Origin: a virus
IMG/VR virus record: IMGVR_UViG_3300025810_000113
Span: 1-20,950 of that record
Reading direction: 5' to 3' (one strand)
DNA: 20,950 nucleotides
Shown: positions 2,947-20,735 of the stretch, one piece after another
How positions within the stretch are numbered: position 1 is the stretch's first letter
Layout of the letters: each line of letters starts with the position of its first letter
Translations under genes and position numbers: made by a program
The notes under the pieces: generated by a model
Told to the model about the DNA's origin: nothing
Database searches by the model: none
The model's input: only the letters and a program-made list of their open reading frames with translations

Positions 2947-3189
2947 TCACCTCTCTATAATAAATTTAACTGCCTCTTGTCTTGATACTGCTCTGTTCTT
3001 AGACAACGATAATAATACTATATGTTCTCTGAACAAGTCAAGTATCGATTGATGTTCCTTCCCAGTCCAGAATTGTTTCTCTGGATGCTTGTCTTGAAAC
3101 CAAACTACAAAGTCCATTGTTGCGCCTATCTCTTCATGGCTTTCACCATAGTCGAGTGCAATTTTCTTATCCTCTTCTTCTTCGGTCAT
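2947..3189 (-). CDS. Acidic hypothetical protein, first in operon (80 aa)
   Basis: An 80-residue protein with a very acidic start (MTEEEEDKKIALDYGESHEE) and a helical remainder (DFVVWFQDKH, SILDLFREHIVLLSLSKN, SRQEAVKFIIE). No family is recognised. The acidic tail plus amphipathic helices would suit a protein that binds another protein, perhaps a host factor, but this is only inference. It has the best ribosome site of the group (AAGGAGGT, five bases before ATG). A 5' leader of about 50 bases carries a stem-loop, and the promoter at 3247-3274 lies upstream. It leads the four-gene operon down to 2151. Confidence 0.65.
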   Translation of the reverse strand: MTEEEEDKKIALDYGESHEEIGATMDFVVWFQDKHPEKQFWTGKEHQSILDLFREHIVLLSLSKNRAVSRQEAVKFIIER

Positions 3190-3223
3190 AAGCTTACCTC
3201 CTTAGGTAAGAATTTTATTTAAG

Positions 3224-3239
3224 CCCAGCAAGGGCTGGG
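3224..3239 (-). promoter_or_regulatory. Stem-loop in operon leader
   Basis: CCCAGC (3224-3229) and GCTGGG (3234-3239) form a 6-bp GC-only stem with a 4-base loop. It lies in the untranslated leader between the promoter at 3247-3274 and the ribosome site of the gene starting at 3189. It is followed by an A/T-rich single-stranded stretch, not a T tract. It therefore looks like an mRNA-stabilising or processing hairpin, not a terminator. Confidence 0.45.
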
Positions 3240-3246
3240 TGCAACC

Positions 3247-3274
3247 AGTTTACCACCGAAGTCGGTTTTGTCAA
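3247..3274 (-). promoter_or_regulatory. Sigma70-like promoter of the 3189-2151 operon, with palindrome in spacer
   Basis: On the minus strand TTGACA (3269-3274) and TAAACT (3247-3252) are separated by 16 bases. Twelve of the spacer bases form the palindrome ACCGA-CT-TCGGT, an obvious place for a repressor. It directly precedes the leader and strong ribosome site of the gene at 3189. The sequence after the -35 (TTGACAAAA) is shared with other promoters in this window. Confidence 0.6.
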
Positions 3275-3338
3275 GAGGTTCCACGCACGAATAACAATAG
3301 CCGAAGACACTAATTAAAATAATAATTACGCAAAACAC

Positions 3339-3368
3339 TTGACACGATATAAGGATTACCTGTATAAT
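3339..3368 (+). promoter_or_regulatory. Sigma70 promoter facing into the inverted-repeat region
   Basis: TTGACA (3339-3344) and TATAAT (3363-3368) match the consensus exactly, with an 18-base spacer, on the plus strand. It reads rightward into the left arm of the inverted duplication, away from the divergent promoter at 3247-3274 (-35 boxes 64 bases apart). The only frame near it is a 20-codon one at 3391-3453, so its product may be a non-coding RNA or a short leader peptide. Confidence 0.6.
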
Positions 3369-3390
3369 CTACGGAGATTAAAAAGGTTAT

Positions 3391-3453
3391 ATGTTTGGAG
3401 TTGAGGTATTCAGTGGTAGTTGCTTGAAAACTTCTAAAACTTCTAAAACTTAA
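3391..3453 (+). CDS. Possible 20-residue leader peptide
   Basis: A short frame begins 23 bases after the TATAAT box with a weak AAAGG ribosome site. It encodes MFGVEVFSGSCLKTSKTSKT and then stops. The 3' end is a direct repeat of AAAACTTCT. The matching position of the other arm has a different 14-codon frame (minus strand), so the peptide sequence is not conserved between arms. It may be a leader peptide or nothing. Confidence 0.2.
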   Translation: MFGVEVFSGSCLKTSKTSKT

Positions 3454-3487
3454 TAATATTCTGGGTAAATTTTAAATGAAAAATAAG

Positions 3488-3517
3488 TTATCCACAAGTT
3501 ATACATACTTATACACA
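3488..3517 (+). promoter_or_regulatory. Three tandem DnaA-box-like 9-mers
   Basis: TTATCCACA (3488-3496) is the perfect bacterial DnaA box. TTATACATA (3499-3507) has one mismatch to TTATNCACA, and TTATACACA (3509-3517) fits TTATNCACA. Starts are 11 and 10 bases apart, about one helical turn, all in the same orientation. The preceding 60 bases are very A/T-rich. This is the arrangement of a DnaA-dependent origin or of DnaA-controlled transcription. The segment is present only in the left arm. Confidence 0.5.
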
Positions 3518-3602
3518 AGGAATAGACAAGTTACTAACAGCAACTCGTTCAGTACTCAGGCGGTTTTTACAAGGCGTTATTAACTCATATAATTAAATTT
3601 AG

Positions 3603-3657
3603 GTATGGGTATGGTCATATAAAGAGCTGAGTTTATCTCAGTTATAAATGCCCACCC
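3603..3657 (+). ncRNA. Candidate structured RNA element, partly conserved in both arms
   Basis: GGGTATGG (about 3607-3614) and CCCACCC (3651-3657) can pair around an inner stem AGCTGAG (3625-3631) / CTCAGTT (3637-3643) with a TTTAT loop. Together they make a long interrupted hairpin. In the right arm (5313-5339, minus strand) the same outer stem is kept while the inner hairpin is replaced by a short loop. It lies downstream of the promoter at 3339-3368. Retention of the outer stem with a changed loop suggests an RNA structure, but no known family is recognised. Confidence 0.3.
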
Positions 3658-3741
3658 GAATTTTCCAGTTCTCTTCAGGTATGAATTGTATGTTTGTGAA
3701 TGCAAACTTCGACAAGAAGACATATGAGACCTGGAAAATTC
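3658..3741. repeat. 84-bp hairpin-ended segment, absent from the other arm
   Basis: GAATTTTCCAG (3658-3668) is perfectly inverted as CTGGAAAATTC (3731-3741), and pairing continues with TCTC/GAGA after one mismatch. A smaller GTTTG/CAAAC hairpin lies inside (3692-3707). When the two arms of the large duplication are compared, exactly this segment is missing from the right arm (junction near 5308-5313). It behaves like a miniature inverted-repeat element gained by the left arm, or a palindrome lost from the right. No flanking target-site duplication is evident. Confidence 0.5.
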
Positions 3742-3770
3742 TTAAAATGAATCTGCTCTAATTTAAACAT

Positions 3771-3802
3771 AAAAAAAGCTCCCTTTAATTAAAAAGAGAG
3801 CT
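3771..3802 (-). terminator. Intrinsic terminator of the 4418-3820 gene pair
   Basis: On the minus strand an AGCTCTCTTT / AAAGGGAGCT stem (one G-U pair) with a short A/T loop runs into seven U. It lies 18 bases beyond the stop of the gene at 3820-4221. The mirrored copy near 5265-5276 keeps only one side of the stem and has lost its T tract. Confidence 0.75.
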
Positions 3803-3819
3803 TAATTAGTAACTAAATC

Positions 3820-4221
3820 TTATAATTTAGTTGCAACAACCTTTAAAAACATATCAACTGGAGTCTTTTCTTGATTATGTTCCTTAAAAGATTTAGTTAC
3901 TTTAACCATAATTCTTTTAGGAAGAGCTTTAGAATTATCCTCAAAATATGCTTGGCAAGCATCAGAATCAAATTTCTTATCATCTAAAAGAACTTTAGAA
4001 ACTCTAGCTTTAATTCTATTATTGAAAGATTTTTTCATTGATTCTGACTCATTTTCACGAGGGTCAGATTCGAAAACCTTCTGAATAAAGCTTTCTAATG
4101 TGAAATTTGCTACACAATATGCTTGCTTTCTAGTGCAAGGTCTTCCTGACATTTTGTTAGCGTTAAATCCGGCAGACTTGTCTGCATTTTTTGTTACAAT
4201 GAAATCACTTAATGTTTTCAT
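3820..4221 (-). CDS. Hypothetical protein, intact copy of an inverted gene duplicate (133 aa)
   Basis: An unrecognised 133-residue basic, mostly helical protein starting MKTLSDFIVTKNADKSAG. It has a short S-G-R-P-C-T-R-K motif at about residues 25-32, then amphipathic helices (TLESFIQKVFES, FNNRIKARVSKVLLDD) and ACQAYFEDNSKALPKRIMVKVTKSF. Two cysteines occur (about C29 and C36), with a third in DACQAY. The basic character would suit nucleic-acid binding, which is inference only. It lies two bases downstream of the gene at 4224-4418 and before a terminator, so the two form a bicistronic unit. A degraded mirror copy lies at 4846-5226, which implies an intact ancestor was duplicated and one copy was kept. 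Confidence 0.65.
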   Translation of the reverse strand: MKTLSDFIVTKNADKSAGFNANKMSGRPCTRKQAYCVANFTLESFIQKVFESDPRENESESMKKSFNNRIKARVSKVLLDDKKFDSDACQAYFEDNSKALPKRIMVKVTKSFKEHNQEKTPVDMFLKVVATKL

Positions 4222-4223
4222 GT

Positions 4224-4418
4224 TTATTTACCTTTATAGGTTAGTTGAAGTTCTTCAATTTGAGATTGAAGCCGTTTAAAATCAGAAGCTGATGAGCATC
4301 TGAATCCTGCGATTAAAAAGTTTTTAAGCAAATAAGCCTTAATAACTTCTTGAACCATAGAATAAGTAGGAATTACTACTGTTTCGTTGTTAGAAAATGT
4401 TATTAGAATTTCTCTCAT
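4224..4418 (-). CDS. Small hypothetical protein, intact copy of an inverted gene duplicate (64 aa)
   Basis: An unrecognised 64-residue protein starting MREILITFSNNETVVIPTYS: a beta hairpin, then a long amphipathic helix (MVQEVIKAYLLKNFLIAGF), then a second helix (SASDFKRLQSQIEELQLTYKG). The size and strand-helix-helix layout would suit a small dimeric regulator or a partner of the next protein, but no family is recognised. The ribosome site is AAAGGAA eight bases upstream. It is followed two bases later by the gene at 3820-4221. The mirror copy at 4640-4843 has lost its ATG (TTG) and meets a stop at codon five. Confidence 0.6.
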   Translation of the reverse strand: MREILITFSNNETVVIPTYSMVQEVIKAYLLKNFLIAGFRCSSASDFKRLQSQIEELQLTYKGK

Positions 4419-4437
4419 GTTATATTCCTTTGCGATT

Positions 4438-4620
4438 TAAAAGAACAATACAGAACATCAAGGATTTTAATATGCAAATGCTTGAAATTGAAGAGCTTTA
4501 CCTCAATTTTTTTACATTTTGTGCTTTTTAAAATGTGAAACATTTGCATATTACAATACTATGTTATCGTTAACTAGAAAAACTTTAAAACTTTAAATGT
4601 TTTTTCTAGTTTTGTTCTGG
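4438..4620. repeat. Centre of the inverted duplication, with cruciform potential
   Basis: This unique 183-bp spacer joins the two arms. TAATATGCAAATG (4468-4480) is perfectly inverted at 4541-4553 (13 bp). Inside it lie two further perfect 7-bp stems, AAATTGA/TCAATTT (4485-4491 with 4503-4509) and ACATTTT/AAAATGT (4514-4520 with 4530-4536), giving a three-way-junction shape. A separate 11-bp stem AACTAGAAAAA / TTTTTCTAGTT follows (4572-4582 with 4601-4611). No reading frame is supported. It could be an origin structure, a protein-binding palindrome or an RNA. Confidence 0.55.
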
Positions 4621-4639
4621 AATCGCAAAGGAATTAACC

Positions 4640-4843
4640 TTGAGGGAATTATAATTATCAGTTTCTTAGAACGAAACAGTACTAATTCTGTAGTTATTGT
4701 AAGGTTCAAGAAGTTTGTTATGATTATTTGCTTAAAACCAAACAATCGCAGAAGTATTCATATGCTCATCAGATAATGATATTTTAAACAGGCTTCACAT
4801 GTCAAATGAATCTTTTTACTTCACAAACTTCTAAAGTAAATAA
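4640..4843 (+). pseudogene. Broken mirror copy of the 4224-4418 gene
   Basis: The sequence matches the reverse complement of the 4224-4418 gene in blocks, including its ribosome-site region (4621-4634), AACGAAACAGTACTAATTCT (4670-4689), GGTTCAAGAAGTT (4703-4715) and TTATTTGCTTAAAA (4724-4737). The start codon has become TTG (4640-4642) and the frame reads L-R-E-L-stop. Several frameshifts follow. It cannot make the 64-residue protein. Confidence 0.75.
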
Positions 4844-4845
4844 AC

Positions 4846-5226
4846 ATGAAAACTGCTTTTTAAGTGATTTCATTGTATCAAAAAATAGGCGGAGGTTTAA
4901 TTTAACACTAACAAAATGTGGAAGACCTAAGCTGAAACAAAGCAAGCTTATTGTCCCAAGCAAATCTTTACTTAGAAAGCTCGGTTAGGTTTTCTAATAT
5001 GTCCTCGTACTGTAATGAGCCAGAAGCTTGCGATAATTTTTTATTACAGCTTTAGAAGATTTAGAAGTTACAAAGTATTTTAAAGATTTCTTTAAGATTC
5101 TGATGCTTGCCAAGCCTATGAAAAAGATTCTAAAGCTAATATAGTAGAATTATGGTAATTTGAGAAATCTTTAATTGAAATAATTAAGAACTGTAAAGAG
5201 TTGTAGTTTACAAAGGCTGTAATATA
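4846..5226 (+). pseudogene. Broken mirror copy of the 3820-4221 gene
   Basis: The start region AAATAAACATGAAAAC is identical to the intact gene, but a small insertion after the third codon gives M-K-T-A-F-stop. Past the insertion the old frame is still recognisable: LSDFIVSKN against LSDFIVTKN, and CGRP against SGRP. Near 5096-5158 the frame reads DSDACQAYEKDSKANIVELW then stops, against DSDACQAYFEDNSKALPKRIM in the intact gene. Stops and frameshifts separate the two parts. A 60-codon hybrid frame at 4806-4988 spans the junction of both remnants and is not a real gene. Confidence 0.75.
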
Positions 5227-5460
5227 AAAAATTATTGTTTCAGCTAATTAAGCTATCAATAAAAAAAGGGAGCTACTGATAGGTGGTATCTGATGAGCAG
5301 ATTCCTTTTAGTGGGTGGGCAGAAGACCATACCCATACCACTATATATCTATGTACTGATCATACATTTTTAGAAGTTTTAGTAGTTAACCAGATCTAAC
5401 TGGTATATCTGCGCCTATTAAAGACTCCATAGACTACATATGTGACCTGCTCGGCACATA
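5159..5460. other. Outer part of the right arm, no intact gene
   Basis: This stretch holds the decayed terminator copy (near 5265-5276), the mirrored GGGTGGGCA (5313-5321) and GACCATACCCATACC (5325-5339) blocks, the mirrored AGAAGTTTTAG block (5368-5382) and a weak mirrored CTCCATAG (5425-5432). A short ACCAG/CTGGT stem lies at 5389-5404. On the minus strand a 14-codon frame (MESLIGADIPVRSG, about 5385-5429) lies in the leader of the promoter at 5465-5493. Nothing here is a supported protein gene. Confidence 0.6.
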
Positions 5461-5464
5461 AGTT

Positions 5465-5493
5465 ATTATATAGTTAATTTTTAAGTTTGTCAA
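5465..5493 (-). promoter_or_regulatory. Perfect-consensus sigma70 promoter facing into the right arm
   Basis: On the minus strand TTGACA (5488-5493), exactly 17 bases, then TATAAT (5465-5470): an ideal sigma70 promoter. It reads leftward through the whole right arm and centre and then into the two intact genes at 4418-3820. It may therefore be their promoter, with a leader of about 1 kb. A TCGGCAC site (5451-5457) sits at the expected start point. It is back to back with the terS promoter. Confidence 0.65.
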
Positions 5494-5511
5494 GGGCTAT
5501 AGAAAATAAAG

Positions 5512-5540
5512 TTGACAAAACTTCTATATGGCTATATACT
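5512..5540 (+). promoter_or_regulatory. Promoter of the packaging and virion genes
   Basis: TTGACA (5512-5517), 17 bases, TATACT (5535-5540) on the plus strand. Transcription would start near 5547, downstream of the first ATG of the terS frame (5528). This argues for the internal ATG at 5582 as the start. It diverges from the promoter at 5465-5493, the -35 boxes being only 18 bases apart, so one bound protein could control both. Confidence 0.6.
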
Positions 5541-5581
5541 TTAATGATGTCTTTCACAAACACTATAGAGATTTTAAAAGA

Positions 5582-6016
5582 ATGTCAGTACTACCAAGCA
5601 CAAACAATAAACAAACTAGAAGCCTAACTGAAAAGCAACAAGCATTTCTAGAACATTTAGTAGATACACAAGGAGATTCTAAGAAAGCAGCAAATCTAGC
5701 AGGCTATACTGGACACTATTCTCAAATAGTAAAGGCTTTAAAAACAGAGATACTAGAAATAACACAAGAGATCTTAGCAAACTCTGCGCCTAAAGCAGCT
5801 TTTAAGGTTGTAGAAATTATGGAAGCAGACCGACCAGTAATACAAGCTAATAATAAGTTAGCTGCTGCCACTACTTTACTTGATAGAGTAGGAGTTTCTA
5901 AAGTAGATAAGTTAGATGTAACTCATAAAGCAGCAGGAGGTATATTTCTTATGCCTGATAAAGCACCAATGGAAGCAGTAAAAACAGAATACACAGAGAT
6001 AAGAGGAGAAGAGTAA
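5582..6016 (+). CDS. terS: Terminase small subunit (144 aa from the internal start)
   Basis: The DNA-recognition subunit of the packaging motor: it binds the packaging site and hands DNA to TerL. After a short tail the protein reads SLTEKQQAFLEHLVDTQGDSKKAANLAGYTG, the helix-turn-helix signature of small terminases. Next come a helical oligomerisation region (ILEITQEILANSAPKAAFKVVEIME) and a C-terminal tail (HKAAGGIFLMPDKAPMEAV) likely to touch TerL or portal. The open frame extends back to ATG 5528 (162 residues), but the promoter -10 overlaps those codons and neither start has a good ribosome site. I prefer 5582. Its place just before TerL fits. Function is clear from motif and context; the exact start is not. 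Confidence 0.75.
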   Translation: MSVLPSTNNKQTRSLTEKQQAFLEHLVDTQGDSKKAANLAGYTGHYSQIVKALKTEILEITQEILANSAPKAAFKVVEIMEADRPVIQANNKLAAATTLLDRVGVSKVDKLDVTHKAAGGIFLMPDKAPMEAVKTEYTEIRGEE

Positions 6017-16436: not shown

Positions 16437-19400
16437 ATGGCTCAAACATACACTAGACAAAGTTCAATAGCTGATGGAGATACCATTACTGCTGCACTTT
16501 TTAATAACGAATATAATCAACTTTTAAATGCTTTTGCTTACTCTTCAAGTAGTGCATCATCTACAGGACACCGACATGATGGATCTACAGCACAAGGCGG
16601 TAATATTTATAAAATAGGTGACTTAGATTTTCTTAATAAAATAGAAGCTGATAGTACTAACAATCGTTGGGGAATTTATGTAGAAGTATCTAGTGCAGCC
16701 GTAGAACAAATAAGAATACAAGACGGAGCTATTGTACCTGTTACAGATAATGATATAGATTTAGGTACAAGCTCATTAGAATTTAAAGATGCATACTTTG
16801 ATGGTACAGTAACTTCAGATGCTTTTGCAGGTCCATTAACAGGAGATGTTACAGGTAATGTATCGGGTACTGCAGCAACTGTAACAACGGCTGCACAGTC
16901 TAATATTACAAGTTTAGGAACTTTAACAACTCTTACTGTTGATAATGTTATAGTTAACGGAACTACAATAGGTCATACATCAGATACAGATTTAATGACT
17001 CTTGCTGATGGAGTATTAACAGTAGCAGGTGAAGTTTCAATGACTACACTTGATATAGGTGGTACAAATGTAACAAGCACAGCAGCAGAACTTAATATTC
17101 TTGATGGTGTAACGAGTACTGCAGCAGAACTAAATATAATAGATGGAGACACTAGTGCTACTTCTACAACATTAGCCGATGCTGATAGAGTTGTAGTTAA
17201 TGACGGTGGTACAATGAAGCAAGTTGCTCTTACTGACTTTGAAACTTACTTTGAAAGCTCTATAGATACTATAGCAAACTTTGAAGTTACTACAGAACTA
17301 CAAACTCCACTTATTGCATTTACAGATGGTGATGATGCTATTCAAATTGCAGACGGTGGTGGAGTTACAATGGTTGCTGGTCTTACTTCTACAGCATCGG
17401 CAAACTCATTAGGAGCTACAAGTTTTAATGATGCAGATATTACTAATGTAGGAGATATTCAACTTGATTCTATTACAGGTGACGGAGATACTAATACTTC
17501 AATTACATTTAGTGGATCAGATGTAATAACTATTGCAGCAGGAGGAGACAATCAAGTTACATTTACTAACGGAGCTATTGTACCTTCAACAGATAACGAC
17601 ATAGACTTAGGAACAAGCTCAACAGAGTTTAAAGATGCTTACTTTGACGGCACAGTTACTACAGACGCTTTAGTTGCAGATACTGCAGACATTAATGGAG
17701 GTACTGTTGACGGTGCTATTATTGGTGGTGCAAGTGCTGCAGCTATTACAGGTACTGCTATTACTGGTACAAGTTTTGTAATTGGAAGTGCTGATATAAA
17801 TGAAGCAGAACTAGAAACTATTGATGGAGTTACTGCAGGAACTGTAGCAGCTTCAAAAGCTGTAGTTGTCGATTCTAATAAAGACATTGGAAGTTTCCGT
17901 AACATTACTCTTACAGGAGAACTTGATGCAGCTACATTAGACATTAGTGGTGACGCAGATATAGACGGTACTTTAGAAGCTGATGCAATTACTATTGGTG
18001 GTGTAACTTTAGCAGAAACAATTAGTGATACTGTAGGTGCTATGGTAACTTCTAATACCGAAACAGGTGTTACAGTTACTTACGATGATAGTGATAATAC
18101 GTTAGACTTTGTAATCGGTACACTTAACCAAGACACAACTGGTACAGCAGCGGTAGCTACAACTGTTACTATTACAGATAACGAAAGCACAAACGAAAAT
18201 AATGCTATTGTCTTTACATCAGGTGGAGACTTAGACGGTGGTAACTTGGGTTTAGAATCAGATGGTGATTTAAAATATAATCCAAGTACAGGAACTCTTT
18301 CTGCAACTAACATTTCAGTTAGTGGTACATTTAGTACAGTAAACTCTGTTACAATGAACGCTAACAACGCAGTAGTTTTTGAAGGATCTACAGCAGATGC
18401 ACACGAAACTACACTTTCAAGTATAGATGCTACAGGTGATAGAACAATAAATCTTCCTAATGTATCAGGTACGCTTCCAGTATTAGCGGCTGCATCAGCT
18501 ACTCAAATTAGTTCAACACCAGAAGAACTTAATATACTTGATGGAGCTACTGTAGTTGTTGGAGAAATAAACGCACTAGACTTAGGTTCTACAGCAGTCG
18601 GTACAGCTATTGCTTCTAAAGCAGTCATATTAGATTCTAACAAAGATTATACAGGTATTAGAAACTTAACTATTACAGGTGAACTAGATGGTGCAACTCT
18701 AGATATTTCAGGAGATGCTGATATAGATGGTACTACTAACCTAGATGTCGTAGATATTGATGGTGCTGTTGATATGGCTACAACTCTTGCAGTTGCAGGT
18801 AATGTAGACTTTAATGGTGACTTGGATGTTGATGGAACTACAAATCTTGATGTTGTTGATATAGATGGAGCTGTTGATATGGCTTCTACACTAGCAGTAA
18901 CAGGTATAGTCACACTAACTGACGATTTAATAATCGGTGATGGCAAAACAATCGGTTCTGCTTCAGACGTAGATGCTATGACTATTGCTTCTAATGGACA
19001 AGTAACATTTACACAAACACTTATTGGTACTGCTTTAGATATTTCAGGTGATGCAGATATTGATGGAACTTTAGAAACTGACGCACTAACTATTAATGGT
19101 TCAGCATTAAATTATAAAGCTTTTGGTACTTCTTCAATTATGCTTGGAGACAATGCTACAGGAACTATTGATGCTGCTGACAATAATACTGGTGTAGGTG
19201 TTGATGTTTTTGCAGCTTTAACATCTGGTGATAATAATGTTGCTGTTGGAAAATCTGCTTTAACAGCAAATACGACAGCAGATTACAACACAGCAATAGG
19301 TATGGATGCTTTAAAATCAGCCACAACTGGCGCACAAAACACAATGGTTGGTGCTTTGTCTGGCGATGCGATAACAACAGGTCAATATAATGTAGGTATG

Positions 19401-20735
19401 GGAATACACGCAGTTGGTTCAACGACAACTGCTTCAAGCAATACTGGACTTGGTTATAATGCTTTATTTGCAAACACTACAGGTGCAGATAATGTAGCAG
19501 TTGGAGCAAATGCTTTAGATGCTAACACCACAGGCGAACAAAATGTTGCAGTTGGTAAGGATGCTATGTCTGCAAACACCACAGGAAGTAATAATGTCGC
19601 AGTTGGAGAGCTTTGTTTAGATGTAGCAACAACAGCAAGCTCAAACACAGCAGTTGGTAGCCGAGCAATGGGAGCAACCACAACAGGAGCTTCAAACACA
19701 GCAGTTGGTCAAGGCGCATTGGAAGCAAATACAACAGCTTCTAACAATACAGGTCTCGGTAAACAAGCTCTAGCAGCAAACACAACAGGTACTGAGAACT
19801 CAGCAGTCGGATCAGGTGCTTTAAGAACAAATACTACTGGAGATTATAATACTGCATTTGGTTATGAATGTTTAAGATTAGCTACTACAGCAGCTAATAA
19901 TACTGCAATGGGACACTATGCTCTAGGAGCAACCACAACTGGATACCGCAATACAGCAATAGGAGCTACTGCTGGTGATGCAATAACTACAGGATTAGCA
20001 AATACTACTATGGGTTTTGAGTCTTTAACTACTCTGACTACAGGATCAAACAACGTAGCGATTGGAGAACAAGCATTAGCTAACAGTACAACTGGTGGAA
20101 ACAACACAGCAGTTGGTCGTAAAGCTTTAAAAGCAGTAACTACTGGAACTCACAATGATGCTTTTGGTTTTGAGTGCGCTGACAATCTTACTACAGGTCA
20201 TTCTAATACATTAATTGGTAATGGCATCACTACAGCATCGGTAAGCACTAGCAATGCTAATGGTTTAGGAGTAGATCTTGTGTGCGCAGACAACTACACA
20301 ACTATAGGTCAAGGTTCTGCTGATATTCGGACATCACACGGAAGTACATCTTGGGCAACTGTATCAGACAAAAGAGTTAAGAAAGATATTAAAGACTCTA
20401 CTGTAGGTTTAGCCTTTATCAACGATCTCAGACCAGTAACTTTTAATTATAAAAACAAAGGTGATCTACCTAAAAACTTTAAAGGCTATGAAGAAAGTTC
20501 TACAGAAGTTTATAAAAACTCTAAATCTCAGCATGGTTTTATAGCTCAAGAAGTTAAAGCAGCTATTGATAAACATAGTGATATTAAAGATGGTTTTAGT
20601 ATGTGGGATGATGATGATCCTTCTGGACAACAAAGAGTTGGTGAAGCAGCAGTTATACCTGTATTAGTAAAAGCAGTACAAGAACTTTCAGCACAAGTTG
20701 AAGAATTAAAAGCACAAATAACCGAGGAAAAATAA
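16437..20735 (+). CDS. Long trimeric tail fibre with beta-roll repeats and S74-type chaperone (1432 aa)
   Basis: The receptor-binding fibre. The N-terminus (about 1-60: SIADGDTITAALFNNEYNQLLNAF, then GHRHDGS) probably docks to the tail. The stalk (about 95-910) is built from recurring blocks: VP-x-TDNDIDLGTSS-x-EFKDAYFDGTV twice, TAAELNILDG three or more times, LDISGDADIDGT three times and TNLDVVDIDGAVDMA-x-TLAV in tandem. Residues 915-1254 are twenty 17-residue repeats of the N-T-A-V-G-x-x-A-L-x-x-N-T-T-G type, like YadA/haemagglutinin beta-rolls. The C-terminus is an intramolecular chaperone with the SDKRVKK motif (S1310, K1315) and HGFIAQEV, ending in a coiled coil. S74 members cut themselves just before that Ser, which would free about 123 residues. 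An AGAGAG ribosome site precedes it. Confidence 0.85.
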   Translation: MAQTYTRQSSIADGDTITAALFNNEYNQLLNAFAYSSSSASSTGHRHDGSTAQGGNIYKIGDLDFLNKIEADSTNNRWGIYVEVSSAAVEQIRIQDGAIVPVTDNDIDLGTSSLEFKDAYFDGTVTSDAFAGPLTGDVTGNVSGTAATVTTAAQSNITSLGTLTTLTVDNVIVNGTTIGHTSDTDLMTLADGVLTVAGEVSMTTLDIGGTNVTSTAAELNILDGVTSTAAELNIIDGDTSATSTTLADADRVVVNDGGTMKQVALTDFETYFESSIDTIANFEVTTELQTPLIAFTDGDDAIQIADGGGVTMVAGLTSTASANSLGATSFNDADITNVGDIQLDSITGDGDTNTSITFSGSDVITIAAGGDNQVTFTNGAIVPSTDNDIDLGTSSTEFKDAYFDGTVTTDALVADTADINGGTVDGAIIGGASAAAITGTAITGTSFVIGSADINEAELETIDGVTAGTVAASKAVVVDSNKDIGSFRNITLTGELDAATLDISGDADIDGTLEADAITIGGVTLAETISDTVGAMVTSNTETGVTVTYDDSDNTLDFVIGTLNQDTTGTAAVATTVTITDNESTNENNAIVFTSGGDLDGGNLGLESDGDLKYNPSTGTLSATNISVSGTFSTVNSVTMNANNAVVFEGSTADAHETTLSSIDATGDRTINLPNVSGTLPVLAAASATQISSTPEELNILDGATVVVGEINALDLGSTAVGTAIASKAVILDSNKDYTGIRNLTITGELDGATLDISGDADIDGTTNLDVVDIDGAVDMATTLAVAGNVDFNGDLDVDGTTNLDVVDIDGAVDMASTLAVTGIVTLTDDLIIGDGKTIGSASDVDAMTIASNGQVTFTQTLIGTALDISGDADIDGTLETDALTINGSALNYKAFGTSSIMLGDNATGTIDAADNNTGVGVDVFAALTSGDNNVAVGKSALTANTTADYNTAIGMDALKSATTGAQNTMVGALSGDAITTGQYNVGMGIHAVGSTTTASSNTGLGYNALFANTTGADNVAVGANALDANTTGEQNVAVGKDAMSANTTGSNNVAVGELCLDVATTASSNTAVGSRAMGATTTGASNTAVGQGALEANTTASNNTGLGKQALAANTTGTENSAVGSGALRTNTTGDYNTAFGYECLRLATTAANNTAMGHYALGATTTGYRNTAIGATAGDAITTGLANTTMGFESLTTLTTGSNNVAIGEQALANSTTGGNNTAVGRKALKAVTTGTHNDAFGFECADNLTTGHSNTLIGNGITTASVSTSNANGLGVDLVCADNYTTIGQGSADIRTSHGSTSWATVSDKRVKKDIKDSTVGLAFINDLRPVTFNYKNKGDLPKNFKGYEESSTEVYKNSKSQHGFIAQEVKAAIDKHSDIKDGFSMWDDDDPSGQQRVGEAAVIPVLVKAVQELSAQVEELKAQITEEK
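19179..20198 (+). repeat. Twenty 51-bp units coding for 17-residue beta-roll repeats
   Basis: In-frame tandem array inside the fibre gene. Every unit encodes x-x-N-(T/V)-(A/G)-(V/I/L/M/F)-G-x-x-(A/C)-(L/M)-x-x-x-T-T-(G/A). Twenty full units run from residue 915 to 1254, with a partial one (HSNTLIG) after them. Units differ at DNA level, so this is an old array under protein-level selection. It is coding and without palindromes, so it is not a CRISPR array. Confidence 0.85.

What the first reader, a model, noticed from the sequence alone, without database searches (positions are those of the whole stretch)
3369..5432. A 2-kb mirror-image module: two small genes and their control DNA duplicated in inverted orientation, one copy decayed
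Seen directly: at least nine perfect blocks of 9-20 bases in the left arm recur as reverse complements in mirrored order in the right arm (3950-3969/5096-5115, 4214-4231/4836-4853, 4195-4211/4861-4877, 4424-4437/4621-4634, 3602-3616/5325-5339, 3434-3448/5368-5382 and others). Coding, terminator and upstream non-coding DNA are all included. One arm keeps both genes open; the other has lost a start codon and gained stops and frameshifts. Large palindromes are normally unstable in bacteria, so persistence to this divergence suggests the arrangement is tolerated or used (inference). It sits exactly at the switch from leftward to rightward genes. Possible roles: replication origin or resolution structure, long double-stranded RNA source, or a recombination relic. 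None is established.
Basis: seen in the sequence. Interest (0 to 1): 0.85.

Follow-up and report, generated by a model that had tools for sequence, protein, structure and literature searches.

The report
Giant self-matching hairpin in marine phages
A pair of small phage genes lies beside a mirror-image, non-coding copy of itself, and in dozens of related uncultured phages the two halves keep changing together so that they still match, which points to a huge folded DNA or RNA structure that evolution maintains rather than a decaying duplicate.

Summary
The inverted repeat is real: alignment score 364 against at most 40 in 200 shuffles, and the six named blocks are exact. "One copy decayed" does not hold. 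In 65 of 65 testable loci with the outer gene, the window included, an inverted copy lies upstream; in 0 of 65 does it encode that protein intact. On average the non-coding arm is barely alignable between genomes yet tracks its own coding arm. Nine close pairs show 102 matched double substitutions against 5.5 expected; an 11-genome alignment has 57 covarying mirror pairs against 11-21 slid and at most 36 shuffled. Tolerated mismatches favour the rightward strand in most of the p90 clade, not clearly in the window's clade. So this is a 1-2 kb imperfect stem-loop kept by selection on pairing or an equivalent force. It lies between repeats, DnaA-box-like in 22 of 36 loci, and divergent promoters before terS. 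My best guess is a single-strand hairpin at the replication origin; a long hairpin RNA is the main rival. No Rfam family matched above threshold; four cultured pelagiphages have at most marginal inverted similarity there.

The parts
3339..3368 (+). 12/12 sigma-70-like promoter left of the palindrome, pointing into it
   Evidence: a plus-strand promoter of 11/12 or better left of the palindrome is found in only 2 of 35 loci (WIN, L014); two of the 35 (L015, L109) had almost no left flank
3488..3517 (+). two DnaA-box-like repeats (TTATCCACA 3488-3496, TTATACACA 3509-3517) in the left flank
   Evidence: exact TTATCCACA also lies at this site in records G001, G003 and G005
3429..3457 (.). outermost left-arm repeat, mirrored at 5359-5387
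   Evidence: I5
3602..3657 (+). left half of the hairpin base stem (3602-3616 and 3649-3657)
3579..4510 (.). left arm (coding arm) of the palindrome
3776..3803 (-). intrinsic terminator after p133
3820..4221 (-). p133, intact 133-aa gene; positional equivalent of p90 in the larger clade (homology weak)
4224..4418 (-). p64, intact 64-aa gene; its relative p60 (L080) has a model of pLDDT 92.9
4490..4531 (.). tip of the hairpin, about 42 nt between the innermost arms
   Evidence: I6
4530..5478 (.). right arm, non-coding mirror of the left arm
4640..4843 (+). approximate mirror of p64, not an open gene
   Evidence: (L009, nearly the same sequence)
4846..5240 (+). approximate mirror of p133, 5 stops in the best tblastn match
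5312..5430 (+). right half of the base stem (5312-5339) and adjoining element conserved across clades
   Evidence: 13 loci aligned; the p90-clade form CTATATATCTATAGCATG has exact matches in 57 viral stretches
5465..5493 (-). 12/12 promoter for leftward transcription across the whole palindrome and p64-p133
   Evidence: 11/12 or better in 35 of 35 loci with data
5512..5540 (+). 11/12 rightward promoter before terS; 35 of 35 loci with data have one
5582..6016 (+). terS (listed ORF starts at 5528; in the alignment the ATG of relatives lines up with 5582, and the promoter overlaps 5528, so 5582 is the likelier start)

Best explanation
Shown by comparison (I put this half near 0.9): the feature is a conserved imperfect palindrome of about 1-2 kb, built over a two-gene leftward operon. 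Its right arm is non-coding and stays complementary to the left arm by matched changes. Less secure: what is maintained is a giant stem-loop with a preferred strand, the rightward (+) strand, in most p90-clade clusters. Inferred, my best guess for function: the stem-loop forms when the + strand is single-stranded DNA, as the lagging-strand template for a rightward fork leaving an origin at the repeat cluster on its left, and serves as a cis structure for replication start or strand priming beside the early/late promoter pair. p60/p64 and p90/p133 would be early proteins of unknown activity, possibly acting on the structure. The confidence given is for the whole mechanism.
For: An inverted copy in 65 of 65 testable loci, lowest score 51 against a shuffle maximum of 38. 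Mean arm score within a genome 0.324, against 0.046 for right arm to right arm between genomes. 102 matched double substitutions against 5.5 expected in 9 disjoint pairs, with old mismatches nearby as often as around single right-arm changes. 57 covarying mirror pairs of 204, against 11-21 slid and at most 36 in 200 shuffles. Window clade: 27 against 2.9 expected, maximum 9 in 1000 draws. Plus strand folds more stably in 31 of 36; isolated mismatches summed over 36 palindromes in 20 clusters are G.T 113 (35 from one cluster), A.C 30, G.G 56, C.C 1; the bias is also present in non-coding parts, 114 against 50; fourfold sites of neighbouring genes show no such skew. DnaA-box-like sites left of the palindrome 58 against 7.6 expected in 36 loci. 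A plus-strand promoter of 11/12 or better left of the palindrome in only 2 of 35 loci, which argues against an ordinary rightward RNA in the p90 clade.
Against: No measurement of single-stranded DNA, replication or transcription. DNA and RNA energies fit the mismatch spectrum equally once filtered and cluster-weighted (0.65 against 0.67). The strand preference is weak in the window's own clade (96/77, 82/81, 97/80; 2 against 3 isolated sites in the window), absent or reversed in 5 of 36 folds, and reversed in four distant loci with another gene pair. Third positions of terL/terS taken together do lean to G over C on the plus strand (0.161 against 0.098); only the fourfold sites do not (0.063 against 0.073). 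Much of the raw excess is a gain of G and loss of C in the right arm. DnaA-box-like sites are absent from the left flank of 14 of 36 loci, three of which had 150 nt or less. Nothing explains why the arms need to be hundreds of bases long or overlap genes. The GC-skew switch near the centre coincides with the gene-direction switch, so it is not independent.
Confidence: 0.4

Rival explanations
1. Long hairpin RNA. A rightward transcript that starts left of the palindrome folds into the rod; it could be a structured non-coding RNA or a leader that keeps antisense to p64-p133 sequestered by its own right arm.
For: Plus-strand folds are rods, many with abundant G.U pairs, e.g. L080 507 pairs with 54 G.U against 442 with 10 on the minus strand, though L083 has 7 against 9 and the window 27 against 21. 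Consensus fold -220.9 (312 pairs) on plus against -148.5 (231 pairs) on minus. A 12/12 rightward promoter at 3339-3368 in the window and one in L014.
Against: No plus-strand promoter of 11/12 or better left of the palindrome in 33 of 35 loci, including L122, where the strand bias is strong. G.G mismatches are tolerated about as well as G.T, more than I expect for RNA pairing. No Rfam match at gathering score in the stretches searched.
Confidence: 0.27
2. Self-complementary early mRNA. The conserved leftward promoter makes an mRNA whose 5' leader is the complement of its own coding region, so translation of p64-p133 is held off until the leader is cut or displaced.
For: The leftward promoter outside the right arm scores 11/12 or better in 35 of 35 loci with data, so such an mRNA is expected; the minus strand folds well below shuffled energy in all 36.
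Against: If the mRNA hairpin were the selected form, G.U on the minus strand should be favoured; the opposite is seen in 11 of 16 p90-clade clusters.
Confidence: 0.12
3. DNA-level palindrome kept alike by a mutational process: short-patch copying between arms during hairpin or cruciform formation, with no selection on the structure itself, perhaps with selection for a translatable mRNA giving the strand bias.
For: It would explain matched changes and the loss of right-arm memory between genomes. The strand bias is stronger in coding (3.75) than in non-coding (2.28) parts. Old mismatches are rarer near matched double changes (0.76, 1.82, 3.70 within 4, 8, 15 nt) than near fully conserved columns (1.28, 2.68, 5.15).
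Against: The same rarity holds around single right-arm changes (0.79, 1.75, 3.62), so it needs no copying, and patches would have to be a few nucleotides long. The strand-specific mismatch spectrum is also seen in non-coding parts.
Confidence: 0.16
4. Decaying inverted duplicate.
For: The right arm lacks intact genes.
Against: The same arrangement in 65 of 65 testable loci, matched double changes and within-genome arm identity of 0.757-0.916 over ungapped columns in 36 palindromes, shuffled 0.635.
Confidence: 0.03

Closest known systems
Single-strand origins and hairpin origins of small replicons (recalled)
   Same: A strand-specific imperfect hairpin beside an initiation site.
   Different: Those are, as I recall, one to a few hundred nucleotides and non-coding; here arms of roughly 0.3-0.8 kb overlap two protein genes. 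Not tested functionally.
Eukaryotic hairpin-RNA loci that arise by inverted duplication of a gene (recalled)
   Same: A long hairpin made of a gene and its inverted copy.
   Different: No small-RNA pathway is known to me in the likely hosts; here the copy is kept matched to its own neighbour by matched change.
Large structured bacterial and phage RNAs in Rfam
   Same: Long structure supported by covariation.
   Different: No Rfam family reached its gathering score in window 3000-5700 and six loci; the fold is one rod, half of it antisense to genes.
Pelagibacter phages HTVC103P, HTVC104P, HTVC115P, HTVC033P
   Same: Related large terminase, 51-65% aa identity.
   Different: Inverted scores before terS of 33-37, reached by 4 to 58 of 500 shuffles, against 51 or more in the 65 loci; p133 and p90 have no match in 50,697 phage records.

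Membership tests
Replication origin region | Cluster of initiator-binding repeats at the site and rarely elsewhere | tested here: inconclusive
   DnaA-box-like sites (up to 1 mismatch) 58 against 7.6 expected in 36 left flanks, none in 14 of them; exact TTATCCACA only at this site in G001, G003 and G005, only elsewhere in G002 and G004
Replication origin region | Initiation of DNA synthesis maps here | not testable with these tools
   needs nascent-strand or marker-frequency data
Structured RNA element | Covariation beyond shuffled and slid controls | tested here: met
   57 of 204 mirror pairs with two-sided change against 11-21 slid, maximum 36 in 200 shuffles; a DNA hairpin would meet this equally
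Structured RNA element | Transcript of the structured strand | tested here: inconclusive
   plus-strand promoter of 11/12 or better left of the palindrome in 2 of 35 loci; no transcript data
Known Rfam family | Score at or above the gathering threshold | tested here: not met
   only sub-threshold matches in window 3000-5700 and 6 loci
Decayed duplicate | Second copy free of constraint | tested here: not met

The most novel reading that the evidence does not exclude
A new class of genetic element: a protein operon that phages maintain together with its own non-coding mirror image, so that the region folds into a strand-specific stem-loop of about 1 kb or more kept by base-by-base compensatory evolution, overlapping genes and placed at the origin/late-promoter switch.
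Probability: 0.6. Interest if true: 0.9.

Novelty: categorically new. Interest (0 to 1): 0.82.

Why it matters
Long palindromes are regarded as unstable in bacteria (recalled), yet a group of uncultured phages keeps one over coding sequence and holds its matching by paired mutations. If true it adds a kind of cis element in which a gene's second copy exists only to pair with it, and it gives a concrete target for asking how phages in this group start replication or switch from early to late genes.

Tried and rejected
Searches of Pfam, PHROGs, PADLOC, NCBIfam and PDB sequences gave no family for the two proteins at a convincing score; Rfam gave only sub-threshold matches. Weak matches (PyrR, snoR25, ADAR Z-alpha, DUF382, phrog_3258 at E 0.0075) were dropped. 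Fold searches had no match at E 0.001 or better: PDB for p60 and p90 (73, 74), viral library for p90 only (107). Second looks gave best Z 6.4 to a designed protein for p60 (105) and 3.6 for p90 (106). Function stays open.

Assembly or amplification chimera: rejected, since arms differ at about 20% of aligned positions and the locus is nearly identical in four other contigs. Genome ends at the palindrome centre: rejected, since the contigs run across it. Genome-wide strand mutation bias: fourfold sites show no matching G-over-C skew, but all third positions of terL/terS do lean to G, so this is not fully closed. A preference for DNA over RNA energies looked strong when pooled (0.88 against 0.66) but vanished after filtering and cluster weighting (0.65 against 0.67); I do not use it. 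Searches use counts rebuilt from the rounded rates, and the model fits imperfectly (deviance 14.4). Homology of p133 to p90 is suggested by alignment (52) but unproven (hhalign probability 2%, E 0.024). A T7-type RNA polymerase search found nothing, but its control also rang nowhere (96). p90 was not found in genome contigs, with one pattern used (89). Cultured pelagiphages: inverted scores 37, 33, 37, 36 for HTVC115P, 104P, 103P, 033P; with 50 shuffles two of four exceeded the maximum slightly (87), and with 500 shuffles 58, 17, 4 and 6 reached them (110), so HTVC103P and HTVC033P are marginally above chance.

Rows dropped: of 66 p90/p133 regions, 7 gave no symmetric blastn match over 300 nt (L011, L090, L099, L132-L135), leaving 59, reduced to 36 by a 97% identity cut and to 26 with arms over 500 nt. 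L132 was too short. L110 had no right-flank data. In one search some arms did not span the whole gene, so I repeated that test on the whole right side.

Literature: seven searches for this phage group and for inverted repeats, palindromes or hairpin RNAs in phages; I saw listings only (one search listed none), plus passages of PMC9038755, which has no hit for "palindrom" or "intergenic". Statements marked recalled come from no call.
Full report
The observation. The inverted repeat is real and far above chance. Strict scoring gives 364 against at most 40 in 200 dinucleotide shuffles; lenient scoring gives 306.5 against at most 94 and aligns 858 columns with 692 identities and 175 gap positions. 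The six named blocks are exact. The repeat continues outward to 3429/5387 and inward to about 42 nt between the innermost arms. Four other contigs carry the same 2.3 kb at 99.74-99.96% identity.

What the window is. It is a 20,950-base virus record. Its large terminase is 63-65% identical to Pelagibacter phages HTVC115P, 104P and 103P, and 51% or less to HTVC033P and the HMO-2011-type phages listed. p133 and p90, the protein in the same place in the larger clade, have no match in 50,697 phage records. In four cultured pelagiphages the inverted score before terS is 33-37, reached by 58, 17, 4 and 6 of 500 shuffles: at most marginal.

The arrangement is shared. Of 59 terS loci with at least 900 nt upstream (62 fetched), 39 show a symmetric inverted match of 600 nt or more. 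A p90 search gave 61 loci, many on the same contigs. Among 66 regions with p90 or p133, the window included, 65 had enough flank, and all 65 carry an inverted match of the operon more than 10 above the maximum of 100 shuffles; the lowest is L011, 51 against 38. Direct-orientation matches exceed the shuffle maximum in 3 of 65. Many of these loci are near-identical; 59 of them reduce to 36 at 97%. On the right side no locus holds a stop-free homologous stretch of even half the outer protein: 0 of 65 reach 80% for p90/p133 (largest 48%) and 0 of 57 for p60/p64 (largest 64%), while the same test finds the gene on the coding side in 20 of 20. Many p90-clade palindromes end some 30-75 nt after the p90 stop, at the terminator. 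Four distant loci with another gene pair (L033, L035, L045, L054) fold 100-146 kcal/mol below one shuffle each, the minus strand slightly more stable in all four; five loci without the base motif lie 4-64 below.

The arms evolve together. In 26 full-length palindromes the arms score 0.324 within a genome; over 325 genome pairs left-left is 0.288, right-right 0.046, left-right 0.047, and shuffled -0.085. Right arms of close relatives are still alike (0.62 where left arms exceed 0.9), so the average hides a gradient. The match is equal at the three codon positions of p90 (0.806, 0.811, 0.802). In nine disjoint close pairs, 102 sites changed identically in both arms against 5.5 expected. Shared old mismatches occur within 4, 8 and 15 nt of these sites (0.76, 1.82, 3.70) about as often as near single right-arm changes (0.79, 1.75, 3.62), though less than near fully conserved columns (1.28, 2.68, 5.15); long conversion tracts do not explain this, very short ones are not excluded. 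An 11-genome alignment folded without being told the structure recovers the mirror rod: 312 pairs, 91 with two-sided change. For 204 mirror pairs, 57 have two-sided change, against 11-21 when slid and a mean of 29 and maximum of 36 in 200 shuffles. The window's own clade (three genomes, so not independent pairs) shows 27 against 2.9, 26 against 4.7 and 34 against 5.2 expected matched changes.

A strand preference. Arm mismatches that are G.T on the plus strand outnumber A.C 804 to 279. After adjusting for composition the excess is 1.31-fold for G.T and 1.08 for A.C, so much of the raw excess lies in the right arm's gain of G and loss of C, which is expected if plus-strand pairing is selected but could have another cause. 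Plus-strand RNA folds are more stable in 31 of 36; in L080 507 pairs with 54 G.U against 442 with 10, but L083 has 7 against 9 G.U. Isolated mismatches summed over 36 palindromes are 113 G.T, 30 A.C, 56 G.G, 1 C.C; by cluster G.T exceeds A.C in 12 of 20, ties in 3 and is lower in 5, among them the window, L013 and L014. On pairs chosen without wobble the counts are 33 G.U to 11 A.C. The bias is seen in coding (567/151) and non-coding (114/50) parts. Fourfold sites in neighbouring genes show no matching skew; all third positions of terL/terS do lean to G. The spectrum does not separate DNA from RNA.

Surroundings. In 35 of 35 loci with data a leftward promoter of 11/12 or better and a rightward terS promoter lie back to back to the right of the palindrome; a comparable rightward promoter on the left was found only in the window and L014, two of the 35 having almost no left flank. 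The base of the stem and about 100 nt to its right are conserved across clades. The left flank holds repeats: DnaA-box-like sites 58 against 7.6 expected in 36 loci, present in 22. CCCTCAA-type motifs occur at this site in four of five longer records (1, 2, 2 and 2 copies) with one copy elsewhere in G002 and none in G005, the window's near relative. GC skew changes sign near the centre, but gene direction does too. All five longer records encode a family A DNA polymerase.

Interpretation. The comparative evidence shows selection or an equivalent force that keeps the arms complementary; that is the firm part. That the plus strand is the selected form is likely for most of the p90 clade and unproven for the window's clade. 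That it acts as single-stranded DNA at an origin is inference from position and from the missing rightward promoter. Long hairpin RNA, a self-complementary early mRNA, and short-patch copying between arms remain.

Proteins. p60 is predicted with confidence (pLDDT 92.9) and p90 fairly well (82.6), but neither resembles a known fold convincingly. No function is assigned.

Literature. I searched seven times and saw passages of PMC9038755. None of the listings seen describes such a palindrome; journals not held could.

Noticed in passing
left flank of the palindrome in p90-clade loci (e.g. L104, L107, L118, L122): Loci without DnaA-box-like repeats carry other short repeated motifs in the same place (TTATGTGACAATT-like, GCACAATTGACACA-like), as if origin modules were exchanged.
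   Followed up: partly
p90-clade left flank; copies about 30 nt apart in G002, G003 and G004: CCCTCAACCAACCGAC-like repeats; the other strand reads GGTTGGTTGAGGG, which could form a two-layer G-quadruplex.
   Followed up: partly
A3 alignment, L088 against L092 and L082: L088 carries an L092-like p90 part and an L082-like p60 part, with both arms switching accordingly, as if the central cassette was exchanged as one block.
   Followed up: no
G003 (record of L139), 16452-17310: The DNA polymerase A match is in two pieces, one with three stops inside.
   Followed up: no
G002, 24600-24906: A further CCCTCAAC motif and a TTATCCACA site lie about 5 kb from the palindrome, possibly a second repeat cluster.
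   Followed up: no
window 16437-20735: A 1432-aa protein with long repetitive stretches (NVAVGxxAL-type repeats), tail-fibre-like by eye.
   Followed up: no
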